Below are positions 3 through 51,891 of a stretch of 64,000 nt of DNA, piece after piece. The notes beneath the pieces were generated by a model. The model ran no database searches and was not told where the DNA came from. It was given only the letters and a program-made list of their open reading frames with translations. A program made the position numbers and the translations under genes. The stretch spans positions 1-64,000 of IMG/VR virus record IMGVR_UViG_3300009503_000020, one strand, 5' to 3'. Within the stretch, counting starts at the first letter, position 1. The number at the start of each line of letters is the position of its first letter. Source of the stretch: a virus.

Positions 3-392
3 CAATCCACAATTAAACTCAACGATTGGTTAGTAAACGGCAGAGTTCAACCAGAAAGGACACCCATAAGCTACCCACACGGACATCTTGGCGGATTCCC
101 AACAGTTGCATACCACAGGACAACTAACAGGGTTCAAATTAGTGGCAAATTCACAGTTGCACCCAGAAGTTCAACTGAAAGGGTAAGCCCTACTGAATGC
201 AAATGGTTAAACTATAAATTGCAAGGTGAATTAGTTTGGCAAAATACCACACAGTTAAACTATGAATTGAAAGGTGGAGTAGCCTTTGAGAATACCTCGA
301 AGTTAAACTTTGAGTTGCAAGGACGGTTAGCCTTTAGGAATACTACACAATACAAAACAGTATGGAATACAAGGTATCAACGACGCAGTAAA
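3..392 (+). CDS. C-terminal part of a repeat-bearing structural-type protein (truncated by window start)
   Basis: The frame beginning at base 3 is open from the window edge to a TAA at 390-392, giving 129 residues with no start codon needed inside the window. The last 60 residues hold three imperfect repeats of about 18-20 residues, each like LNYELKGGVAFENTSK or LNFELQGRLAFRNTTQ. Alternating hydrophobic/polar repeats rich in Asn and Thr resemble beta-repeat regions of adhesins, tail fibres or S-layer-like proteins. I cannot name the family. No start is visible, so the gene extends upstream of the window. Confidence 0.6.
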
Positions 393-397
393 TCGTA

Positions 398-500
398 AGT
401 GCAACTGACAAGTGCAACTGACAAGTGCAACTGACAGGGACAACCTAAAAGTGCAACTGTGAAGTGCAACTGCAAAAACAACCCATGAGTGCAACTACAG
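398..500 (+). repeat. Short direct-repeat array, 13-bp unit AAGTGCAACTGAC
   Basis: Three perfect head-to-tail copies lie at 398-410, 411-423 and 424-436, and diverged copies at 450-462, 463-475 and 488-500 keep the core AGTGCAACT. The array starts just after the stop of the preceding gene. The rest of the 393-651 gap holds a TATA-like CATATAATG near 531 and two copies of a GTTC..AAGTTTAC element at about 555-585, but no gene. The array could be an iteron-type origin or a regulator-binding array; it lacks the spacer structure of a CRISPR. Confidence 0.7.
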
Positions 501-1957: not shown

Positions 1958-1986
1958 CTGTATTCACACTTATCATATTACACCTT

Positions 1987-2007
1987 AGCGTCCTGGGACG
2001 CTAGGGT
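1987..2007. promoter_or_regulatory. 16-bp palindrome, possible ParB/operator site, repeated at 39713
   Basis: AGCGTCCTGGGACGCT (1987-2002) has 7-bp arms around a TG centre and is followed by AGGGT. The reverse complement of this palindrome, again followed by AGGGT on the same strand, occurs at 39713-39733 inside the ParB-like gene. Here it sits between a TATA-like TTATCATATTAC and the start at 2031, so it could be a centromere-type site, an operator, or both. Confidence 0.45.
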
Positions 2008-2030
2008 TCATAGGTATAGGAGGGATGTGT

Positions 2031-24936: not shown

Positions 24937-25329
24937 ATGGATAAACGTAAACTCAACGTAAAGCTAAGTCCCTTCATGGTATTCAATAGAGAAGGAGAAC
25001 TTATCTTCTACTCAGACCCACCATGCCCTAAGTGTGATGGGTATATGGGAGGAGAAACTTCAGGTGCTTTCTCTTGTGAGTTCTGTGGCTATTCAGAAAT
25101 AGAGGAGTTATCTTCTCCTCATGGATACTCTTATCTTCTAGAAGGGACTTGGAAGGTAATGAGAGTATTTCTACCTTGCAAGAGACTAAAGTGGGAAGTA
25201 TCTAGAATATTGTATGGTATACACTCTAGACTAGAAACCATATACTTGAGAGGAAGACACAAACTGGTGTATGCAGATGGAGAATATATGTGGGATTGGG
25301 AGGGAAAGAAATGGGTAAAGTTCATATGA
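24937..25329 (+). CDS. Zinc-ribbon protein, 130 aa
   Basis: CPKCDGYMGG ... FSCEFCGYSE (about residues 30-55) is a canonical zinc ribbon; the rest is aromatic-rich and ends YMWDWEGKKWVKFI. Overlaps the transposase start by 19 bases. Confidence 0.6.
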   Translation: MDKRKLNVKLSPFMVFNREGELIFYSDPPCPKCDGYMGGETSGAFSCEFCGYSEIEELSSPHGYSYLLEGTWKVMRVFLPCKRLKWEVSRILYGIHSRLETIYLRGRHKLVYADGEYMWDWEGKKWVKFI

Positions 25330-26342
25330 ATAAGCAGACAGGGATGGTCAGTGTCTTCATTGACTGGGGTAGGAAGAAAAAGAGTGTGGGCTTAGTAGAG
25401 AATTCTAGAGGTGAGATTAAGTCTGGCATCTCATTCCAATTCTCTACTATTAAGGAGCTTCGTTCCAAGATAAAGTCTTATCCCGAGGTTAAGTCTACTC
25501 ATATGGCAAACTTTTTCTTGGAAACAGGAGCTCCCAAAGTCCACTTCCTATACCCACTATGTGACATTGGAAATGTCTATCTAGTGCCAGGCAAACGAAT
25601 AAAAGACTTGAGAGAAGAAAGAAAGATACCTAAGTCAGATGTCAATGATGTATTTCTGATACGAGACTACTACAAAGAACACCCAGAGCATTTCCATAAG
25701 ATAGAGAAGGAAGACCTAGATCTTGCTATAGCTGTCTCTAAATATGACTACATTACTAAAGAAATGGTAAGACTAGAGAATGCTGAGAATGCTTTCAAAA
25801 AAGAGTTTGGTAAGGAGAATGAACTGTTCTTGAAATTGCTAGAAGAACTCAAACCTGCAAAGGAGAAGCTTGAAAGGGAAATAAAGAAACAGTTTCCATA
25901 TCTTACTAAACATTGCCAAGCAATTGGAATTAAAGGTCTAGGAGAGATAACCTTAGCAAGATACTTAGCCCGTGCACATCCTAAGAGGTTTCCTTCACTC
26001 AGTTCTTGGTTAGGTTACATGTTTCTAAAAGCCTACAAGAAATACAAGAACCCTGCTCTGGGATATAAGAAAGACAATATCAACAAGAGTTCATTTGGAG
26101 GATTGCATTACGTCTTTGCTAAAAATCTAAGGATGGCAAAAGACCCTCTATATAAGAAGATACATGCTGACTTAGAGAAGAAATTTCCAGATACAGGCAA
26201 GAAAAACTACGGAGCAGAACTGAACGCAAGGACTATGAATAGACTAGTTACAATACGATTGAAGCAAATCTGGCAGTACTTTAAAGGGCCTGGTTCTATT
26301 GTTGAGGTCAAGTCTACAGAAGGATTGAAACCAGACTCTTAA
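25311..26342 (+). CDS. IS110-family transposase (DEDD recombinase), 343 aa
   Basis: ATG after TGGGAGGGAAAGAA. N-terminal RuvC-like part with VFIDWGRKKKS (first Asp), FFLETGAP (Glu) and KSDVNDVFLIRDYY, which matches the K-x-D-x-x-D-A motif of IS110 proteins. A coiled coil then leads to GIKGLGEITLARYLARAHP, the Transposase_20 helix-hairpin-helix, and SSFGGLHYVFAKNL with the serine expected there. IS110 enzymes use a bridge RNA from the element's non-coding end; four stem-loops lie directly downstream. The gene overlaps its upstream neighbour, so it may be domesticated or inserted precisely. Confidence 0.8.
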   Translation: MGKVHMNKQTGMVSVFIDWGRKKKSVGLVENSRGEIKSGISFQFSTIKELRSKIKSYPEVKSTHMANFFLETGAPKVHFLYPLCDIGNVYLVPGKRIKDLREERKIPKSDVNDVFLIRDYYKEHPEHFHKIEKEDLDLAIAVSKYDYITKEMVRLENAENAFKKEFGKENELFLKLLEELKPAKEKLEREIKKQFPYLTKHCQAIGIKGLGEITLARYLARAHPKRFPSLSSWLGYMFLKAYKKYKNPALGYKKDNINKSSFGGLHYVFAKNLRMAKDPLYKKIHADLEKKFPDTGKKNYGAELNARTMNRLVTIRLKQIWQYFKGPGSIVEVKSTEGLKPDS

Positions 26343-26590
26343 GTACAAATGGCAAGAGGACTTAACAACTGGTCAAGTCTTTGTGTATTCTGTACCTCTA
26401 CCACTTCAAGGAGCCAAGTCTATCTCTAAGTCTTATTAAAACTTCAACTTGGCTCCTCTCAGAGTACTAGGCAGGGTCTTCAGAGATTGTTAAGTCTATT
26501 GAAGGTCTGAACTCTGCCAAGTACAAAGGAGTAGCAAGTCTGAAGCCTTACTCAAGTCTCTAGTAATAATTAACTTGCTACTCCTTACCA
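26343..26590 (+). ncRNA. Candidate IS110/IS1111-type bridge RNA region (four stem-loops)
   Basis: Between the transposase stop and the convergent gene lie: a GTACA/TGTAC-closed loop (26343-26395); a perfect 10-bp stem 26410-26419 with 26447-26456 around a 27-base loop; an 8-bp stem 26470-26477 with 26511-26518; and a perfect 12-bp stem 26528-26539 with 26573-26584 around a 33-base loop. The element AAGTCT recurs in nearly every loop or stem top. Large internal loops on stable stems next to an IS110-type gene are what a bridge RNA looks like; a role as a set of convergent terminators cannot be excluded. Confidence 0.45.
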
Positions 26591-26596
26591 GATAAT

Positions 26597-27304
26597 TCAA
26601 GCAGGAAATTCAACTATAGCATCCGAAGTAGTTACATGATAGATAGCATCTTGAGGAACTAGCAACTTAGGCTTGTATTTGATAGGTATAATAACTTCAG
26701 TATGACTACCATAAGTAACAAAGCTGAATGTCTGTCCTTGCATCTTTAAGGTTAGCTTGTCTTTGATGTAGGGAAGTATAATATTTACATCAGTATCAGC
26801 TACCTGAACAATATGATACTGAATACCTAACCTAATATTTTGACAGTGGAAAATCCATCTCTCATTAGTAAGCAGGTAATCTTCAAGATTCTCATCTATT
26901 TTCTCTTGTTGAGTAATTAACTTCTCTAAGTTGAACATCCCTGAGGATAAATCTTCAACTTCCTTCCATGCAGACTTGATGAGAGCATCTGTAGGCATCT
27001 TTGAATAGTGAACATCATATATAGTCAAGAAGATACCAATAGCAAGAGACTCTTCATTATAGTCCTTGTCTTGAAGTAAATCCCTGAGTGTGAATTTTTT
27101 TCCTTTGATATTCAAGTACTCAGCATCTGGTTTGACTACTTTAGCATGCAATATTACTCCATCATTTGGAGAATAGAACTTAGCAGGAGAATAAGAAACA
27201 GGAAGGATAGGGTTTCTGTTGAACTCCTTTTCAAAGATCTCCTTCCAACTTAGTGAACGGATGCGTTGGACTTCACTTGATGTTAACCAGTCTTTTAGTT
27301 TCAT
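26597..27304 (-). CDS. Phosphatidylserine-decarboxylase-like pyruvoyl enzyme, 235 aa
   Basis: FYSPNDGVI, IKGKKFTLRDLL and LTIYDVHYSKMPTDAL reproduce the PSD motifs SPADG-V, IKG-x-x-Y-S-L-x-x-LL and L-x-x-x-DYHR-x-H-x-P in order. FVTYGSHTEVIIP near the C-terminus matches the G-S site at which PSD proenzymes self-cleave to form the pyruvoyl group, with GSH in place of GST. Length suits a short soluble PSD. It is the second gene of a minus-strand pair with an amidinotransferase-like gene, unlike almost everything else here. Substrate may not be phosphatidylserine; PSD relatives also decarboxylate amino-acid derivatives. Confidence 0.65.
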   Translation of the reverse strand: MKLKDWLTSSEVQRIRSLSWKEIFEKEFNRNPILPVSYSPAKFYSPNDGVILHAKVVKPDAEYLNIKGKKFTLRDLLQDKDYNEESLAIGIFLTIYDVHYSKMPTDALIKSAWKEVEDLSSGMFNLEKLITQQEKIDENLEDYLLTNERWIFHCQNIRLGIQYHIVQVADTDVNIILPYIKDKLTLKMQGQTFSFVTYGSHTEVIIPIKYKPKLLVPQDAIYHVTTSDAIVEFPA

Positions 27305-27318
27305 CAAGACAGGTCACT

Positions 27319-28200
27319 CTATCCTAGATAACTTTGTTCCCAAGCTAGATGAAGTATCATGCATGAGAGTAAAGCTCCTGACTTCAAGTACTCTGATAAG
27401 TCTATGTAAACTGGTGTCAGACCTAGCTTGGTACAAATCTCATTCAGTACAGCCTGTTCAGACTGAATCTGTTTCAGTGCCTGAGGACTGTTCTTGTAAC
27501 CCTTAGAGACATCAGCATTAAGGACTAAGTCATTTAGTTTAAAGCTATTAGTTATCCCTTCTAAACATGCATTGTAGTTTACTTCTATTACATTAGTATA
27601 TTTCTTGATCTCATCCTTAGTATCTGAAGGTATGTCTTCATTAATTATACAATAGTCATTACTGATAGGGAAGATTAGACAGTCTAAGTGGTATAGCCAC
27701 TCATCAGTCTCTACTGGAATAATCTTGCAACCAAACTCTTGAGTGAGCCAAGTGTGTGCTCTTTTGGATGTTCTAATGCCATATCCTCCAACATAGACAT
27801 TGTCATTCAACCACTTAAGCTCAGCTTCTCCTTCAAAGTAATATGGACATTGATATATTTCATATCCTAAGTTCTCTGCTAACTTTTTGAACTCAATCTC
27901 TTCTCCTGCTCTACCTGCAGCCTTAAAGTTAGAGAGGATAGCTACATTTCTCTTCTGGTCTATTTGCATATGAGGAAGAACTTCTGCTGCATTCACTACA
28001 TAAACCTGATCCTGAAGCCCCTGTTTGGGTGGAACAAGATAGACAACACTCCCTTGAGTTAATATAGAATATAGATTAAACCACTGTCTCTGAGCTATTT
28101 CAAGATTGACTTTTCTTTCTTCAGGAGGAATATCCTCCATCCAAGCATTGTTTGCAATGTCAGCACTCAAATAAGTAGGTTCGACTAGTGCTAGTTTCAT
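27319..28200 (-). CDS. Amidinotransferase/dimethylargininase-superfamily protein, 293 aa
   Basis: ATG at 28200 is preferred; an in-frame GTG lies at 28209. The pentein-type pattern is present: FEGEAELKWL, GGYGIRTSKRAHTWL, YHLDCLIFPI with the catalytic His, and a C-terminal SGALLSCMILHL that corresponds to the G-G-S-x-R-C-x-T loop with the catalytic Cys. Such enzymes act on arginine-like guanidinium substrates. It is followed 14 bases later by the PSD-like decarboxylase on the same strand, suggesting consecutive steps on one substrate. Confidence 0.65.
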   Translation of the reverse strand: MKLALVEPTYLSADIANNAWMEDIPPEERKVNLEIAQRQWFNLYSILTQGSVVYLVPPKQGLQDQVYVVNAAEVLPHMQIDQKRNVAILSNFKAAGRAGEEIEFKKLAENLGYEIYQCPYYFEGEAELKWLNDNVYVGGYGIRTSKRAHTWLTQEFGCKIIPVETDEWLYHLDCLIFPISNDYCIINEDIPSDTKDEIKKYTNVIEVNYNACLEGITNSFKLNDLVLNADVSKGYKNSPQALKQIQSEQAVLNEICTKLGLTPVYIDLSEYLKSGALLSCMILHLAWEQSYLG

Positions 28201-28217
28201 TAGGGTCACAAGAATCT

Positions 28218-39353: not shown

Positions 39354-40310
39354 ATGGAATTAAAAATAAACCCTATACTAGAGAAGGCTATTCCACCACT
39401 TAGTCCAGAAAAACAGAAAGCTCTGAAGAAGTCTATTCAGAAGTATGGTCAGAGAGAATCAATAGATGTTATGCCTGATGGAACTATCATAGATGGACAC
39501 CACCGTTACAAGATAATCAAAGAACTTGGACTCGAACCAAAGTATAAGGTTAATGAAGACATAACTACTATAGAACAAGCTCTAGAACTAGGCGAGTCTT
39601 TAAACACTGACAGAAGGCACTACAATACAGCTATGGCAATCTTGCATGCATACAATGTAGAAAAGTCTAAATTAGCTGCAGAAGCTGAGAAGAGAAAGAA
39701 AAGAGGAACCTCAGCGTCCCAGGACGCTAGGGTAGGTAAAACTGCTGGGATTATAGCAGAGAGGTTAGGGATCTCTGAACGCACTGTTGAAAGAGGTTTC
39801 AAGATAATCAGAGATGCTCCTGAAGAAATAAAGCAGTTATGGTTAGGTGAACAGGTGCTTACTCAACCAACTGCCACAGCTATAGAAGCTTTAGAAAGCA
39901 TTCCAGATGAGTACAAGGATAGGAAACAAGTCTTAATAGACATGGTTGTCAAAGATCCAGAGAGAATCACCGAAATCAAGAAGATAGTTGGAGAGACAAA
40001 TGCAGTAATTGCCATGTTGGATGGGGAACCAGATAAAGTCAGAGTTGAAGCAGAGAAGGTACTGAAACCATTATTCTTCACTCCAGACTTAAACATCAAA
40101 GAAGCACTGTGGAAAGTTGAAGAGATAGCAAAGACAGGGCATGTGATCACTAAAGGCAGGAAATGGGCTGATGAGATTGGAGAGACTTGGGAAGAAGCTC
40201 AAGCATGGTTTGCTCACTATGGAGGATATTGCATTGGAGAAGTGAAGGGCTGGGAAGGAGAATGGGATCACCAAAGAGAACAACTAGAAAAGAAAGAGCA
40301 GAAAGAGTAG
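39354..40310 (+). CDS. ParB-like DNA-binding/partition protein, 318 aa
   Basis: ATG after AGAGGTGAATTGT. N-terminal ParB domain with SIDVMPDGTIIDGHHRYKI, then a helix-turn-helix VGKTAGIIAERLGISERTVERG of the KorB/ParB kind, and a helical C-terminal third. No ParA gene is in the window. A 16-bp palindrome with its AGGGT flank, also at 1987, lies inside this gene. ParB-like proteins of this type also act as transcription regulators. Confidence 0.7.
   Translation: MELKINPILEKAIPPLSPEKQKALKKSIQKYGQRESIDVMPDGTIIDGHHRYKIIKELGLEPKYKVNEDITTIEQALELGESLNTDRRHYNTAMAILHAYNVEKSKLAAEAEKRKKRGTSASQDARVGKTAGIIAERLGISERTVERGFKIIRDAPEEIKQLWLGEQVLTQPTATAIEALESIPDEYKDRKQVLIDMVVKDPERITEIKKIVGETNAVIAMLDGEPDKVRVEAEKVLKPLFFTPDLNIKEALWKVEEIAKTGHVITKGRKWADEIGETWEEAQAWFAHYGGYCIGEVKGWEGEWDHQREQLEKKEQKE
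39713..39733. promoter_or_regulatory. 16-bp palindrome inside the ParB-like gene, matching 1987
   Basis: AGCGTCCCAGGACGCT followed by AGGGT. The palindrome is the exact reverse complement of the one at 1987-2002 and has the same 3' flank. It encodes SASQDARV at the edge of the helix-turn-helix, so codon constraint alone cannot explain the copy outside the gene. Confidence 0.45.
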
Positions 40311-45144: not shown

Positions 45145-45633
45145 ATGTCAACTACTCCTCAAGATATAGAGAAGAAGTTTCCTGAAGTTTATGGCTATTC
45201 TATAAAGAAGGAGAGGAAAGAACAGGTAACCATAAAAGGAATTTCTCTTGAGATAAAGAAGTATACAACTACACTTAAGACAGGTGGAATTAGAGTCTCA
45301 CTTATAGACAACACTAGTGAGTTCTTTCTCAAGTACAATGAGTACCTTGCATCTATAGAGAGTTTTAGACCTGCAGAAGAGAAAGCAATGAACATGTGGT
45401 CTTTCACTACTCTGTGCACAGCAGATCCAAGTCTAGAAGAGATGGGAGGAGCAGGGTTCTATGTGTATCAGAATCACCTTGTGTTCAATGAAGAAGAGAA
45501 GAGTGCTCCTCCTATAGATAGACTTACTAAGTTTATAGAACACTACAAGAAGAAGTTTGGTATTAGAACAAGACTCAAGGAAGATGATTTCTCAGACTTG
45601 GATGTTCTAGAGAGGACAACAGAGAATGAATAA
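45145..45633 (+). CDS. Hypothetical component of the ATPase/VWA module, 162 aa
   Basis: Starts one base after the ATPase stop and overlaps the metallopeptidase gene by eight bases, so it is probably an obligate partner. Mostly beta-rich with a C-terminal helix; no recognised domain. Confidence 0.55.
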   Translation: MSTTPQDIEKKFPEVYGYSIKKERKEQVTIKGISLEIKKYTTTLKTGGIRVSLIDNTSEFFLKYNEYLASIESFRPAEEKAMNMWSFTTLCTADPSLEEMGGAGFYVYQNHLVFNEEEKSAPPIDRLTKFIEHYKKKFGIRTRLKEDDFSDLDVLERTTENE

Positions 45634-47449
45634 GGAACTAATTACTAAGAAGAATTTCAACAAGATAGCTAAGAGATTAGAGGAACTGCAAGTACGCAGT
45701 TGGAAGATGTCTAGACCTATATTCCCTAAGATGACTCTATACTTCAAAGTATTTCCTATAGAATCATATTTCTCTACTGTAGGTCAGATCTGGTGGGTCA
45801 CACCTTACTGGAGAGGAGATGCTTTTGCTCTCTCTATTTTGTTCCATGAAGGACATCACTGGAACATCTATCCACTAGATATATTTAGAGCTATCAAAGA
45901 TATCTTTGAAGCTAGAAGACTTCTTGCTGAGGAGATAGGATTCGTACCTGAGAAAATCCAGAAGTCTCTTTGGAGAGTAGAAGAAGACTGGAGTCAGTTT
46001 GCATACTCTACAGCTGAACTTCAGTTCGTTGAAAATATTCTCGGAGATTACTGTCTTGAAGGAACGACAAAGATCCTACTCCCTGGTGGTGCAGAAAAAG
46101 AAATCAGAGAGATAAAAGAAGGAGATATAATCCTAGGAGTAAGAAATGGAAAAGTGGTACCTACTCGGGTCTTAGGGATTGGGAAAACTCTTCACACTGA
46201 AATAATTGAATTCAGAGATGGAAAACGCCATTTAGTCACCTCCCCTGAACATAAAATTTTTTCTTATCCAGACTTTCAACTTAAACTAGCAAAAGAGTTT
46301 AATAATGAGAGTGTTTACTATTACTTGGATGATAAACTTGGGCAAAAGAACCTGGACAGAAGAACAGATACAATTCCTGAAGGAAAATTATCCGAAGATG
46401 ACAGCAAAAGAAATAGCAGCAAGACTAGGAAAAACAGTTCACAGTGTTCAAGGCTATGTTTACCTTCACGTAGATACTCTCTCCAAGCGAGAACTCTCAA
46501 GAAAAAGATGCCACCAGATAGTCACTTCATTTACAGAAACGGAGAAAGCTTATATTGCTGGAATTGTCGATGGGGAAGGAACGATTACGATCGTGGGAAA
46601 GAAATATCGACAACCAATGATATCAATATCCAACACTTCTTTCCTTCTCAAAGAATATTTCGAACGACTTGGCTTTCAAACTCGAGTGAAGACAAATTGG
46701 GCAGGAACAGAATACTTCTCACTTTACATAACAGGGCAACACAATATCAGAGAATTCCTAGTTGCTATCAAAGATTACTTAGTAATCAAGAAGGAACATG
46801 CCCAACTCTTGCTGCAGTGGTTAGAACTGAAAGCTCAACAGAAGGTTCATGGCAAAGACACTCCTCAAATGGAGGAACTATTCAAACGCTTGAAACTTTT
46901 GAACTCAAGACATCCACATTTAAGGTTATCAGAAAGAAAAAAACTGATCCAGTAATTCTCTATGATCTAAAAACTTCAACCGGTTCATTCTTTGCTAACA
47001 GGATTCTAGTCCACAATTGTGTGAATTTACATATACATGACAACTATCCTCTAGTGTGGAATGATCTCTGGCATTTCCTCTCAGTTGAAGGTACATTTTA
47101 TGAGAAAGAGAAAGCACTCAAGAGAGACACTACTTTCCTGTTATACTTAGCAGTCTATCCAGAGCTAATTCCAGGTTTAGAACAGATACCAGTCAAAGAG
47201 AAAGTTTCTGAAGAGAAGATACCTAAGATAGCTCACATTGTTAAACTATGTAAAGAAGGAAGGATTTCTACTCCCTATGCTATTAAAGAGCTAGCTAAGT
47301 TATTCCATGACAATATCCAACAGGATCTCAAAGAAGCAGAAGGAGAAGGGAAAGAAGGAGATTTCAAATGCCCCAAATGCCACTCAGATGAAGGGTGGGA
47401 GATAGTCTCATACTTTGATGAACAGAAAGGAAAGTGGTTAGATGTCTGA
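45626..47449 (+). CDS. HExxH metallopeptidase-like protein interrupted by an intein, 607 aa (285 aa after splicing)
   Basis: The N-extein (142 aa) has FALSILFHEGHHWNIYPL with a zinc-binding HEGHH, and ends VENILGDY. The C-extein begins CVNLHIHDNYP and ends with a CPKCHSDEG knuckle. The join restores GDYCVNLHI, which aligns with VDAAVNEIL of the DUF2201-like protein at 11428, so the intein sits in the predicted active-site helix. The 322-residue intein is 46052-47017. The metallopeptidase and the VWA domain that are fused in the first module are separate genes here. Confidence 0.75.
   Translation: MNKELITKKNFNKIAKRLEELQVRSWKMSRPIFPKMTLYFKVFPIESYFSTVGQIWWVTPYWRGDAFALSILFHEGHHWNIYPLDIFRAIKDIFEARRLLAEEIGFVPEKIQKSLWRVEEDWSQFAYSTAELQFVENILGDYCLEGTTKILLPGGAEKEIREIKEGDIILGVRNGKVVPTRVLGIGKTLHTEIIEFRDGKRHLVTSPEHKIFSYPDFQLKLAKEFNNESVYYYLDDKLGQKNLDRRTDTIPEGKLSEDDSKRNSSKTRKNSSQCSRLCLPSRRYSLQARTLKKKMPPDSHFIYRNGESLYCWNCRWGRNDYDRGKEISTTNDINIQHFFPSQRIFRTTWLSNSSEDKLGRNRILLTLHNRATQYQRIPSCYQRLLSNQEGTCPTLAAVVRTESSTEGSWQRHSSNGGTIQTLETFELKTSTFKVIRKKKTDPVILYDLKTSTGSFFANRILVHNCVNLHIHDNYPLVWNDLWHFLSVEGTFYEKEKALKRDTTFLLYLAVYPELIPGLEQIPVKEKVSEEKIPKIAHIVKLCKEGRISTPYAIKELAKLFHDNIQQDLKEAEGEGKEGDFKCPKCHSDEGWEIVSYFDEQKGKWLDV
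46052..47017 (+). other. Intein 1 (322 aa, Cys1 to terminal Asn) in the metallopeptidase-like gene
   Basis: Begins CLEGTTKILLPGG (block A) and HLVTSPEHKIF (block B with T-x-x-H), and ends VILYDLKTSTGSFFANRILVHN before Cys+1 (blocks F and G). These are the splicing blocks of an active-looking Hint domain. Between them, about 215 residues in the intein frame are Ser/Arg/Thr/Gln-rich and resemble no protein, because that DNA encodes a LAGLIDADG endonuclease in the +1 frame. Confidence 0.85.
46305..46955 (+). CDS. LAGLIDADG homing endonuclease encoded in the +1 frame inside intein 1, 216 aa
   Basis: ATG at 46305 with a weak AAAAGAG upstream. RTWTEEQIQFLKENYP ... KEIAARLGKTVHSVQGYV is a SANT/helix-turn-helix DNA-binding part, then EKAYIAGIVDGEGTITIVG is a LAGLIDADG motif and FLVAIKDYLVIKKEHAQLL the typical following helix. 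Its frame differs by +1 from the intein frame, which has no stop across it. T-ending codons are never followed by AA-, AG- or GA-starting codons: Phe is TTC before GAA or AAA, and Ile is ATC before AAA, AAG or AGA. Confidence 0.8.
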   Translation: MRVFTITWMINLGKRTWTEEQIQFLKENYPKMTAKEIAARLGKTVHSVQGYVYLHVDTLSKRELSRKRCHQIVTSFTETEKAYIAGIVDGEGTITIVGKKYRQPMISISNTSFLLKEYFERLGFQTRVKTNWAGTEYFSLYITGQHNIREFLVAIKDYLVIKKEHAQLLLQWLELKAQQKVHGKDTPQMEELFKRLKLLNSRHPHLRLSERKKLIQ

Positions 47450-50337: not shown

Positions 50338-51891
50338 ATGCAGACTTTAATTCATTCAGGAGTGTATTTACCAACATATAATCCAATAGGTCTGACAATC
50401 AAGTTCAAAGGAAAAGAGATAGAACTAGAGCCTGAAGCAGAGTGCATGGCAATTGCTTTTGCTAAGAAATTTGATACACCATACTTAAATGATAATGTGT
50501 TTGTTACCAACTTCCTTCTAGACTTCTCTACCAAGCTAGGAATAGAGAAAGAAGATGGTTGTTTAGACTTAAAGAACTATGACTTTGAAGCTATCAAAAA
50601 ATACTTAGAAGAGACAAAAGCTAAGACAGAGGGTATGACTAAAGAAGAGAAGAAATTAGCTACTACTTTAAAGAAACAACTAAGAGAGCAACTGAAAGAA
50701 AAATATGGATATGCCTTAGTAGATGGAGTGAAGACTCCTGTAATGAATTGGGCAGTTGAACCTCCCTCGATATTTATGAGCAAAGGAAAGAACCCTCTCA
50801 GAGGACACTGGAAGAGAGCAATACGCAAAGAAGAGATTATACTTAATTCCTCTCAACCAATGGAAGGTTGGAATACAGTCTGGGAACCTAATGAGTTGTG
50901 GATAGCTAAATGGAAGGATGTCTTTGACCCTACTCGTTGGAAGTATGTCTGGTTGTCACCTGCCTCTCAGCTTAGACAAGAAAGAGAAAAGAAGAAGTTT
51001 GAAAAGGCAGAGAACTTAGCTAAGAATATTAAGAAACTAGAAGTATTCATAGACAAAGAACTGAAGAGTCCAGATGTAACTAGGAGAAAGCTAGCTACTG
51101 TATGTTGGTTAATGAAGAATTTAGGTATTCGAGTCGGAGATGAACGTATCGCAGGAGAACGTGGCACACTTGGTTGTACTACTCTCAAGGCAGAGAATGT
51201 CAAACTAGGTAAAGATGGTACAGTTTATCTAGACTTCACAGGCAAAGATTATGTTCATTGGATGAAGTCTTTCAAGCCACCAGAACAAGTCTACAAGAAC
51301 TTACAAGAGTTCAAAGAAACAGCTAAGGATGACTTTCTCTTTAAAGGACTTGACTCCAACAAAGTTTCTCGCTTCCTCAGAGAAGTCTTGCCTGGGATGT
51401 CAGCTAAGGTCTTCAGAACTTATCTAGCAGGAACAGTGTGGGATGAGAATGCTAAGGAGCATCTCAAGCTAGTAGATGGAAGAACTTCACTCCCTGTTAG
51501 ACTTTACCTGTTTAAGATGACTAACTTAGCAGTAGCCAAAACATTAAACCATAGAAGAGCCTTACCAAAGAATTACCAAGAGAGAATTGCTAAGAAAGAA
51601 GAACAACTAAAGAAGGAAACAGCTAAGCTAGAATCCTTGAAAGAAGCTCCTGAGTCTAAACTACTAAAACAACAGAGGAAGGCAGAGAAAATAGCTTGTG
51701 AGTTAAATCTCTTGAAAGAGACAGCAGAGTGGAACCTGAACACTAGTCTGACTAGTTATATTTCCCCTAAGAAGACACTCTACTTCTGCAAGAAAGCTGG
51801 ACTTAAACCAGAACAGATATATTCCAAGAGTCTCCAAGAGAAGTTTAGTTGGATAATTAAGAGGGATGAGGACGATACAGAGGAGAGCTGA
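50338..51891 (+). CDS. Type IB DNA topoisomerase, eukaryote/thaumarchaeote type, 517 aa
   Basis: WAVEPPSIFMSKGKNPLRG matches the N-terminal core region of eukaryotic topoisomerase I. KYVWLSPASQLRQEREKKKF, LGIRVGDERIAGERGTLGCT (catalytic Arg in IRVG, then T-x-GC), MSAKVFRTYLAG (second catalytic Arg) and, after a coiled-coil linker, NTSLTSYISPKKTLYF with the nucleophilic Tyr complete the set. The linker and the large N-terminal domain separate it from the short poxvirus/bacterial IB enzymes. Among archaea this enzyme is a hallmark of Thaumarchaeota and relatives. It would relax supercoils during replication and transcription. Confidence 0.85.
   Translation: MQTLIHSGVYLPTYNPIGLTIKFKGKEIELEPEAECMAIAFAKKFDTPYLNDNVFVTNFLLDFSTKLGIEKEDGCLDLKNYDFEAIKKYLEETKAKTEGMTKEEKKLATTLKKQLREQLKEKYGYALVDGVKTPVMNWAVEPPSIFMSKGKNPLRGHWKRAIRKEEIILNSSQPMEGWNTVWEPNELWIAKWKDVFDPTRWKYVWLSPASQLRQEREKKKFEKAENLAKNIKKLEVFIDKELKSPDVTRRKLATVCWLMKNLGIRVGDERIAGERGTLGCTTLKAENVKLGKDGTVYLDFTGKDYVHWMKSFKPPEQVYKNLQEFKETAKDDFLFKGLDSNKVSRFLREVLPGMSAKVFRTYLAGTVWDENAKEHLKLVDGRTSLPVRLYLFKMTNLAVAKTLNHRRALPKNYQERIAKKEEQLKKETAKLESLKEAPESKLLKQQRKAEKIACELNLLKETAEWNLNTSLTSYISPKKTLYFCKKAGLKPEQIYSKSLQEKFSWIIKRDEDDTEES

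What the first reader, a model, noticed from the sequence alone, without database searches (positions are those of the whole stretch)
25311..26590. IS110-type transposase followed by a four-stem-loop RNA candidate
IS110-family recombinases use a bridge RNA from their non-coding end, upstream in one group and downstream in the IS1111-like group. Here 248 bases directly after the gene fold into four stems with 11-33-base loops, two of them on perfect 10- and 12-bp stems, with AAGTCT recurring about seven times. This is a good candidate for an archaeal bridge/seek RNA.
Basis: partly seen in the sequence, partly recalled or inferred. Interest (0 to 1): 0.75.

Follow-up and report, generated by a model that had tools for sequence, protein, structure and literature searches.

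The report
Viral TIGR-Tas nuclease with nested guides
An archaeal-type virus carries an RNA-guided DNA-cutting system of the recently described TIGR-Tas kind, not an IS110 transposon, and some of its hairpin guide units appear to be written inside the nuclease gene itself.

Summary
The hairpins are real, but they are not an IS110 bridge/seek RNA. The gene (25311-26342) is a TasR-like protein: a RuvC/DEDD nuclease domain plus a Nop-type RNA-binding domain, without the catalytic-serine segment of IS110 transposases. The array obeys one strict unit: stem - CT - 10 nt - T[T/C]AA - GTCT - 10 nt - 3 nt - stem. Six ungapped units share this 33-nt loop while their stems differ and still pair (89.6% of cells; shuffles 58.8%). 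A seventh hairpin has a 27-nt loop. All lie on the + strand of one 1.2-kb locus in a 120.7-kb virus. This is the stem-loop form of TIGR array described by Faure et al. 2025 (PMC12045711). Three strict units lie inside the tas reading frame; 0 of 20,000 synonymous shuffles gave three. The only homolog found (Asgard genome, 27-30% identity) has two units with the same motifs and spacing just upstream of its gene, though with weak stems. A syntenic sister virus lacks gene, array and two neighbours. No spacer target was found. New: a stem-loop array beside a TasR with all four acidic residues, and guides nested in the effector ORF. No expression data; function inferred.

The parts
25311..26342 (+). 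tasR-like gene, 343 aa: RuvC/DEDD nuclease domain (about 12-130; D18, E71, D110, D113), coiled coil (133-194), Nop-type C-terminal domain
   Evidence: NF052498 TIGR_Tas_endo 19.2 bits for this protein and 48.9 for its homolog; AF2 model pLDDT 71.5, Foldseek top hits TIGR-TasR 9mty; alignment with IS110s
25393..25449 (+). unit U1 (inside ORF): 12-bp stem, CT|AGAGGTGAGA|TTAA|GTCT|GGCATCTCAT|TCC
   Evidence: synonymous-codon shuffles
25463..25523 (+). unit U2 (inside ORF): 13 of 14 stem pairs, CT|TATCCCGAGG|TTAA|GTCT|ACTCATATGG|CAA
26284..26340 (+). unit U3 (inside ORF, reaching the stop codon): CT|ATTGTTGAGG|TCAA|GTCT|ACAGAAGGAT|TGA; stem CTGGTT/AACCAG plus outer pairs
   Evidence: its free energy alone is not better than shuffles
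26350..26403 (+). unit U4: CT|TAACAACTGG|TCAA|GTCT|TTGTGTATTC|TGT; short stem AGAGG/CCTCT plus TGG/CCA, mismatch at the closing pair
   Evidence: loop consensus exact; stem weak, other fold preferred by MFE
26409..26457 (+). unit U5, non-canonical: perfect 11-bp stem, 27-nt loop (first spacer shortened by 6 nt)
   Evidence: z -4.96
26464..26524 (+). unit U6: CT|TCAGAGATTG|TTAA|GTCT|ATTGAAGGTC|TGA; 14-position stem with a mismatch
   Evidence: z -4.76
26526..26586 (+). unit U7: CT|GAAGCCTTAC|TCAA|GTCT|CTAGTAATAA|TTA; perfect 14-bp stem
   Evidence: z -4.96
26597..27307 (-). neighbour in the same variable block: phosphatidylserine decarboxylase-like protein
   Evidence: PF02666 E 2.6e-19; absent from the sister virus
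27319..28209 (-). neighbour in the same variable block: DDAH-like protein
   Evidence: PF19420 E 4e-4, below cut-off; phrog_12759; absent from the sister virus

Best explanation
A TIGR-Tas system with a stem-loop TIGR array. The protein is a TasR-like, Nop-domain RNA-guided DNA nuclease. Each hairpin is one guide (tigRNA): the palindromic stem takes the place of the edge repeat, GTCT/CT acts as box C and TNAA/TNA as box D, and the two 10-nt segments are spacer A and spacer B. By analogy with TasR, a dimer would bind one guide; spacer A would pair with one strand and spacer B with the other strand of a contiguous site of about 20 bp, and each RuvC-like domain would nick one strand. Shown here: gene family, four acidic residues, loss of the IS110 serine segment, strict unit architecture, stems kept as pairing, same motif and spacing at the only homolog found, accessory (non-core) status in the virus. 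Inferred: transcription, processing, DNA cleavage, targets, and the likely role in competition with other mobile elements. Three units lie inside the tas ORF; I infer that the mRNA also supplies guides, and that Tas binding to its own message could limit its synthesis.
For: Protein: NF052498 TIGR_Tas_endo is the only NCBIfam match (E 9e-4; homolog 7.5e-13); the homolog's only PDB sequence match with E up to 10 is 9mty (E 1.9e-9), the deposited TIGR-TasR structure; the two-sequence profile gives 9mty at 1.3e-8; the AF2 model's top Foldseek hits are TasR 9mty, then IS621/ISCro4, with TasH also found. DEDD residues kept, IS110 serine segment gapped. RNA: the five best 33-nt-loop hairpins among 1,922 candidates on both strands of the 120.7-kb virus are all here, + strand; 0/3000 dinucleotide shuffles of the locus give even one unit; between-unit pairing exceeds all shuffles and all slid registers. 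Homolog: two AGTCT-N10-T[TC]AAGTCT units 63 nt apart directly upstream of its gene. [quoted passage not shown]
Against: This protein scores far below the NF052498 curated cut-off (19.2 of 100 bits), its homolog too (48.9). Box sequences differ from TasR's UG/CCA, and the 3' box D is loose (TCC, CAA, TGA, TGT, TGA, TTA in the six canonical units). The AF2 alignment contained IS110 rows, and VIA-align does not separate TasR (Z 14.1) from IS621 (14.9). Published stem-loop TasR loci have an inactive RuvC; this one looks active. The U4 stem is weak, U5 has a short first spacer. The homolog's stems are weak and its stretches fold no better than shuffles. No spacer target found. No expression data.
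Confidence: 0.86

Rival explanations
1. IS110/IS1111-type insertion sequence with a bridge or seek RNA: a DEDD-serine recombinase that inserts itself, guided by one RNA with a target-binding and a donor-binding loop.
For: IS110-related DEDD nuclease domain; structural likeness to IS621; structured non-coding DNA next to the gene.
Against: Catalytic-serine segment absent in this protein and its homolog, present in four true Asgard IS110s; single copy; several equivalent units, three in the ORF; spacers match flanks no better than random (mean longest match 5.8 versus 6.3); no 11-of-12 direct or inverted repeats between the flanks; the sister virus has other genes at that place rather than an empty site.
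Confidence: 0.05
2. Domesticated or degenerate IS110-family protein; the hairpins are its regulatory or protein-binding sites (for example RNA operators for autoregulation) and not guides.
For: Protein divergent from all curated families; units inside the ORF would suit autoregulation; no targets found.
Against: Two 10-nt segments vary freely between units whereas box-like motifs and spacing are fixed; operators would be expected to be alike; same two-segment geometry at the homolog with other segment sequences.
Confidence: 0.08
3. The system is TIGR-Tas, but the units inside the ORF are coincidental or merely decayed copies of array units taken into the reading frame, with no function as guides; only U4-U7 (or U3-U7) are real.
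For: U3 lies in a C-terminal tail absent from the homolog; U1 lies in a stretch where the homolog has a gap of 17 residues, about one unit long; the homolog's units lie upstream of its probable start.
Against: U1 and U2 keep a 12-bp perfect stem and a 13-of-14-pair stem around exact 33-nt loops; 0/20,000 synonymous shuffles give three units, 7 give two.
Confidence: 0.35

Closest known systems
TIGR-Tas, stem-loop array type (Faure et al. 2025, PMC12045711, Fig. 7)
   Same: Nop-domain protein; tandem hairpins next to the gene; each loop with two 8-12-nt variable segments bounded by two short box-C/D-like motifs; edge palindromes variable in sequence
   Different: Published stem-loop arrays go with TasA (no nuclease) or, in CPR bacteria, with TasR whose RuvC is inactive; here the four acidic residues are present. 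Box motifs are CT/GTCT and TNAA. Three units lie inside the effector ORF, which the parts of that paper read here do not describe.
TIGR-TasR of a Thermoproteota archaeon (PDB 9MTY)
   Same: RuvC-like + coiled coil + Nop domain order, about 330-343 aa, KxDxND motif, no IS110 serine segment; the homolog aligns to it at E 1.9e-9
   Different: That system has a dual-repeat array with UG/CCA motifs and 9-nt spacers; this one has a stem-loop array with 10-nt spacers
IS110/IS1111 transposases with bridge/seek RNA (PMC11208160, PMC11187229)
   Same: Related DEDD nuclease domain, shared fold
   Different: Here no serine segment, no element ends found, one copy, and many equivalent units instead of a single two-loop RNA
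Box C/D sRNP (Nop5, PDB 3PLA)
   Same: Nop-type domain and box-bounded paired guides (VIA-align Z 7.7, which may be only a common arrangement)
   Different: Nop5 has an inactive RuvC-like domain that recruits fibrillarin and guides RNA methylation; no such partners were seen here

Membership tests
TIGR-Tas (stem-loop array type) | Tas protein with a Nop-type RNA-binding domain related to known Tas proteins | tested here: met
   NF052498 matches, homolog to 9mty E 1.9e-9, Foldseek top hits TasR; below the narrow equivalog cut-off, see next row
NCBIfam NF052498 equivalog (narrow group) | Score above the curated cut-off of 100 bits | tested here: not met
   19.2 bits, homolog 48.9; so it is not filed in that narrow group, only in the wider TIGR-Tas family
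TIGR-Tas (stem-loop array type) | Array of several units, each with two 8-12-nt variable spacers | tested here: met
   Six ungapped units with two 10-nt variable segments
TIGR-Tas (stem-loop array type) | Spacers flanked by repeated box C- and box D-like motifs | tested here: met
   Invariant CT, T.AAGTCT and A; inner and outer box C alike (GTCT/CT), outer box D loose
TIGR-Tas (stem-loop array type) | Variable but palindromic sequences at unit edges | tested here: met
   89.6% of cells paired, 7 of 8 pairs with two-sided changes; weak in U4
TIGR-Tas (TasR) | RuvC active-site acidic residues | tested here: met
   D18, E71, D110, D113 aligned with the DEDD of IS110s; KxDxND aligned with 9mty
TIGR-Tas | Array transcribed and processed into unit RNAs bound by Tas | not testable with these tools
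   needs small-RNA sequencing
TIGR-Tas | Tandem-spacer targeting of both DNA strands | tested here: inconclusive
   No target above chance in own or sister virus; viral collection hits at about chance level
IS110/IS1111 insertion sequence | Catalytic serine segment in the C-terminal transposase domain | tested here: not met
   The segment with WESG/RESAG/MQSG is gapped in P0001 and P0002, present in four Asgard IS110s
IS110/IS1111 insertion sequence | Defined element ends, empty site | tested here: inconclusive
   None found, but the only relative has other genes at that place
IS110/IS1111 insertion sequence | RNA loops match target/donor flanks | tested here: not met
   Spacer-flank matches below the random mean

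The most novel reading that the evidence does not exclude
Guide units of an RNA-guided nuclease are nested in the coding sequence of the nuclease itself (including the DNA for the core of its RuvC domain), so that one RNA must serve as message and as guide precursor; Tas binding or processing of these units would destroy or block its own mRNA, a built-in feedback loop, and guides would evolve under protein-coding constraint.
Probability: 0.45. Interest if true: 0.82.

Novelty: new variant of a known kind. Interest (0 to 1): 0.68.

Why it matters
TIGR systems were described in 2025, and their natural targets, array origin and link to IS110 and box C/D RNPs are open questions. This locus adds a stem-loop array beside a TasR with an intact-looking nuclease site, in a large tailed virus with archaeal features, with a homolog in an Asgard genome. 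It gives exact 10+10-nt spacers that can be tested, and guides that overlap the effector gene, which would be an unusual case of one RNA being both message and guide.

Tried and rejected
IS110 bridge/seek RNA: rejected on the missing serine segment, many equivalent units, no flank match. Known Rfam family: none except a chance match elsewhere. Relatives of the protein by tblastn or pattern in viral contigs, phages, plasmids and genome contigs: none; the AHPKRF pattern gave two unrelated virus genes. Scan of viral contigs for the unit: 107 stretches, one with a stem (L027), in an unrelated gene without any Tas, judged chance. NF052498 search of 227 Asgard genomes: the other four hits are ordinary IS110 transposases. 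Weak hits L141 and L142 are unrelated. Spacer targets: best matches in own and sister genome equal to random pairs; the viral collection gave 1 and 6 hits with 18 fixed bases, about what I estimate for chance; the best (L153) matches U7 at 19 of 20. Single-sequence AF2 failed (pLDDT 42). BFVD gave no significant match.

Full report
WHAT WAS CHECKED. The ORF at 25311-26342 encodes 343 aa. The 261 bases after it fold at -84.3 kcal/mol, z -5.65, 0 of 200 shuffles as good. The window lies in a 120,717-bp virus record with portal, terminase, B-family DNA polymerase and eukaryote/archaea-type topoisomerase IB genes; the topoisomerase's only genome matches were Lokiarchaeota and Thorarchaeota MAGs, 38-39% identity. 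An archaeal, perhaps Asgard, host is therefore plausible but not shown.

THE PROTEIN. Pfam gives no transposase match. NCBIfam gives one match, TIGR_Tas_endo, E 9e-4; PHROGs gives a transposase family over residues 12-134, E 8e-4. Searching 227 Asgard genomes found one true homolog (E 4.6e-20, 27% identity), P0002, next to 2-oxoacid ferredoxin oxidoreductase genes. P0002 matches TIGR_Tas_endo at 48.9 bits, IS110 at 36.6 bits (cut-offs 100 and 140) and Pfam DEDD_Tnp_IS110 at 29.9 bits (cut-off 29). Its only solved relative by sequence is 9mty (E 1.9e-9), the deposited TIGR-TasR structure. In an alignment with four IS110 transposases from Asgard genomes, D18, E71, D110 and D113 align with the DEDD residues, while the segment that carries the catalytic serine (WESG, RESAG, MQSG) is missing from P0001 and P0002. 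AlphaFold2 on that alignment gave pLDDT 71.5 and pTM 0.62; Foldseek ranks TasR 9mty first, then IS621 and ISCro4, with TasH further down; VIA-align ties IS621 (Z 14.9, rmsd 6.2, 284 residues) and TasR (14.1, 5.0, 267). The alignment was mostly IS110 rows, which biases the model towards IS110.

THE ARRAY. Putting the hairpins in one register gives stem - CT - 10 nt - T[T/C]AA - GTCT - 10 nt - 3 nt - stem, a 33-nt loop. Of 1,922 places in the virus where AAGT sits at that loop position, the five best stems (scores 23-34; the next is 18) are all here on the + strand: U1 25393-25449, U2 25463-25523, U3 26284-26340, U6 26464-26524, U7 26526-26586. U4 (26350-26403) fits the loop exactly with a weaker stem; U5 (26409-26457) has a perfect 11-bp stem but a 27-nt loop. 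The loop consensus occurs 9 times in the genome; the six here have stems, the three others none; the sister virus has two, neither with a stem of note. The six units align without gaps; 89.6% of stem cells pair against 58.8% in shuffles, with two-sided changes in 7 of 8 pairs, and sliding the register destroys this. 3,000 dinucleotide shuffles of the locus gave no unit.

UNITS INSIDE THE GENE. U1-U3 lie in the ORF. Permuting synonymous codons 20,000 times never gave three such units and gave two 7 times. The reading frame there is probably real: D18 lies upstream of U1, E71 is encoded in the 3' arm of U2, and the model places these stretches in the RNase H-like core. U3 encodes a C-terminal tail that the homolog lacks. 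In the homolog, two units with the same motifs and the same 18-nt GTCT-to-GTCT period (AGTCT-GTAAACTTTA-TCAA-GTCT-GTACATATGT and AGTCT-AAAGAGTTGA-TTAA-GTCT-CCCCTGTTCG) lie directly upstream of the probable start; in loci not chosen for the pattern it turns up only once elsewhere (L138). Their stems are weak and the stretches fold no better than shuffles, so the homolog supports motif and spacing, not the stem.

CONTEXT. A sister virus (156 kb, terminase 76% identical) is syntenic on both sides (genes 24937 and 28562, 52% and 55% identical), but tas, the array, a phosphatidylserine decarboxylase-like and a DDAH-like gene are replaced there by other small ORFs. The system is an accessory module in a variable site.

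WHAT IT IS. [quoted passage not shown] This locus fits. The published TasR with stem-loop arrays have an inactive RuvC; here the acidic residues are present. I therefore file it in the wider TIGR-Tas family as a new variant, outside the narrow NCBIfam equivalog. Likely mechanism: guides from the array load Tas dimers, spacer A and B pair with opposite strands of a contiguous site (rules), and both strands are nicked; purpose, by analogy and inference only, competition between mobile elements. Targets were not found.

LIMITS. Two protein sequences only; no close relative to measure selection on the nested units; no transcripts; function by analogy.

Noticed in passing
window 62546-64519 and 45626-47449: Intein-like insertions: PF14890 in the first (E 8e-16), weaker in the second (E 3e-4, below cut-off); the sister virus aligns only outside these stretches, so it seems to lack both.
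   Followed up: partly
window 26597-28209: A virus-encoded phosphatidylserine decarboxylase-like gene and a DDAH-like gene sit next to the array on the opposite strand and are missing, with it, from the sister virus.
   Followed up: partly
window 206-472: Tandem repeats near the start of the record: 48-bp unit x3 and 13-bp unit AAGTGCAACTGAC x5.8.
   Followed up: no
window 50338-51891: Eukaryote/archaea-type topoisomerase IB, closest to Asgard MAG proteins (38-39% identity), a hint at the host.
   Followed up: partly
window 1982-2009 and 39706-39733: 28-nt near-palindromic GC-rich inverted copies 37.7 kb apart (89% complementary), unlike the AT-rich surroundings.
   Followed up: no
L143 3508-5776: Two uncharacterised proteins beside the Asgard homolog, one with a very weak BrxB match (E 4e-4).
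   Followed up: no
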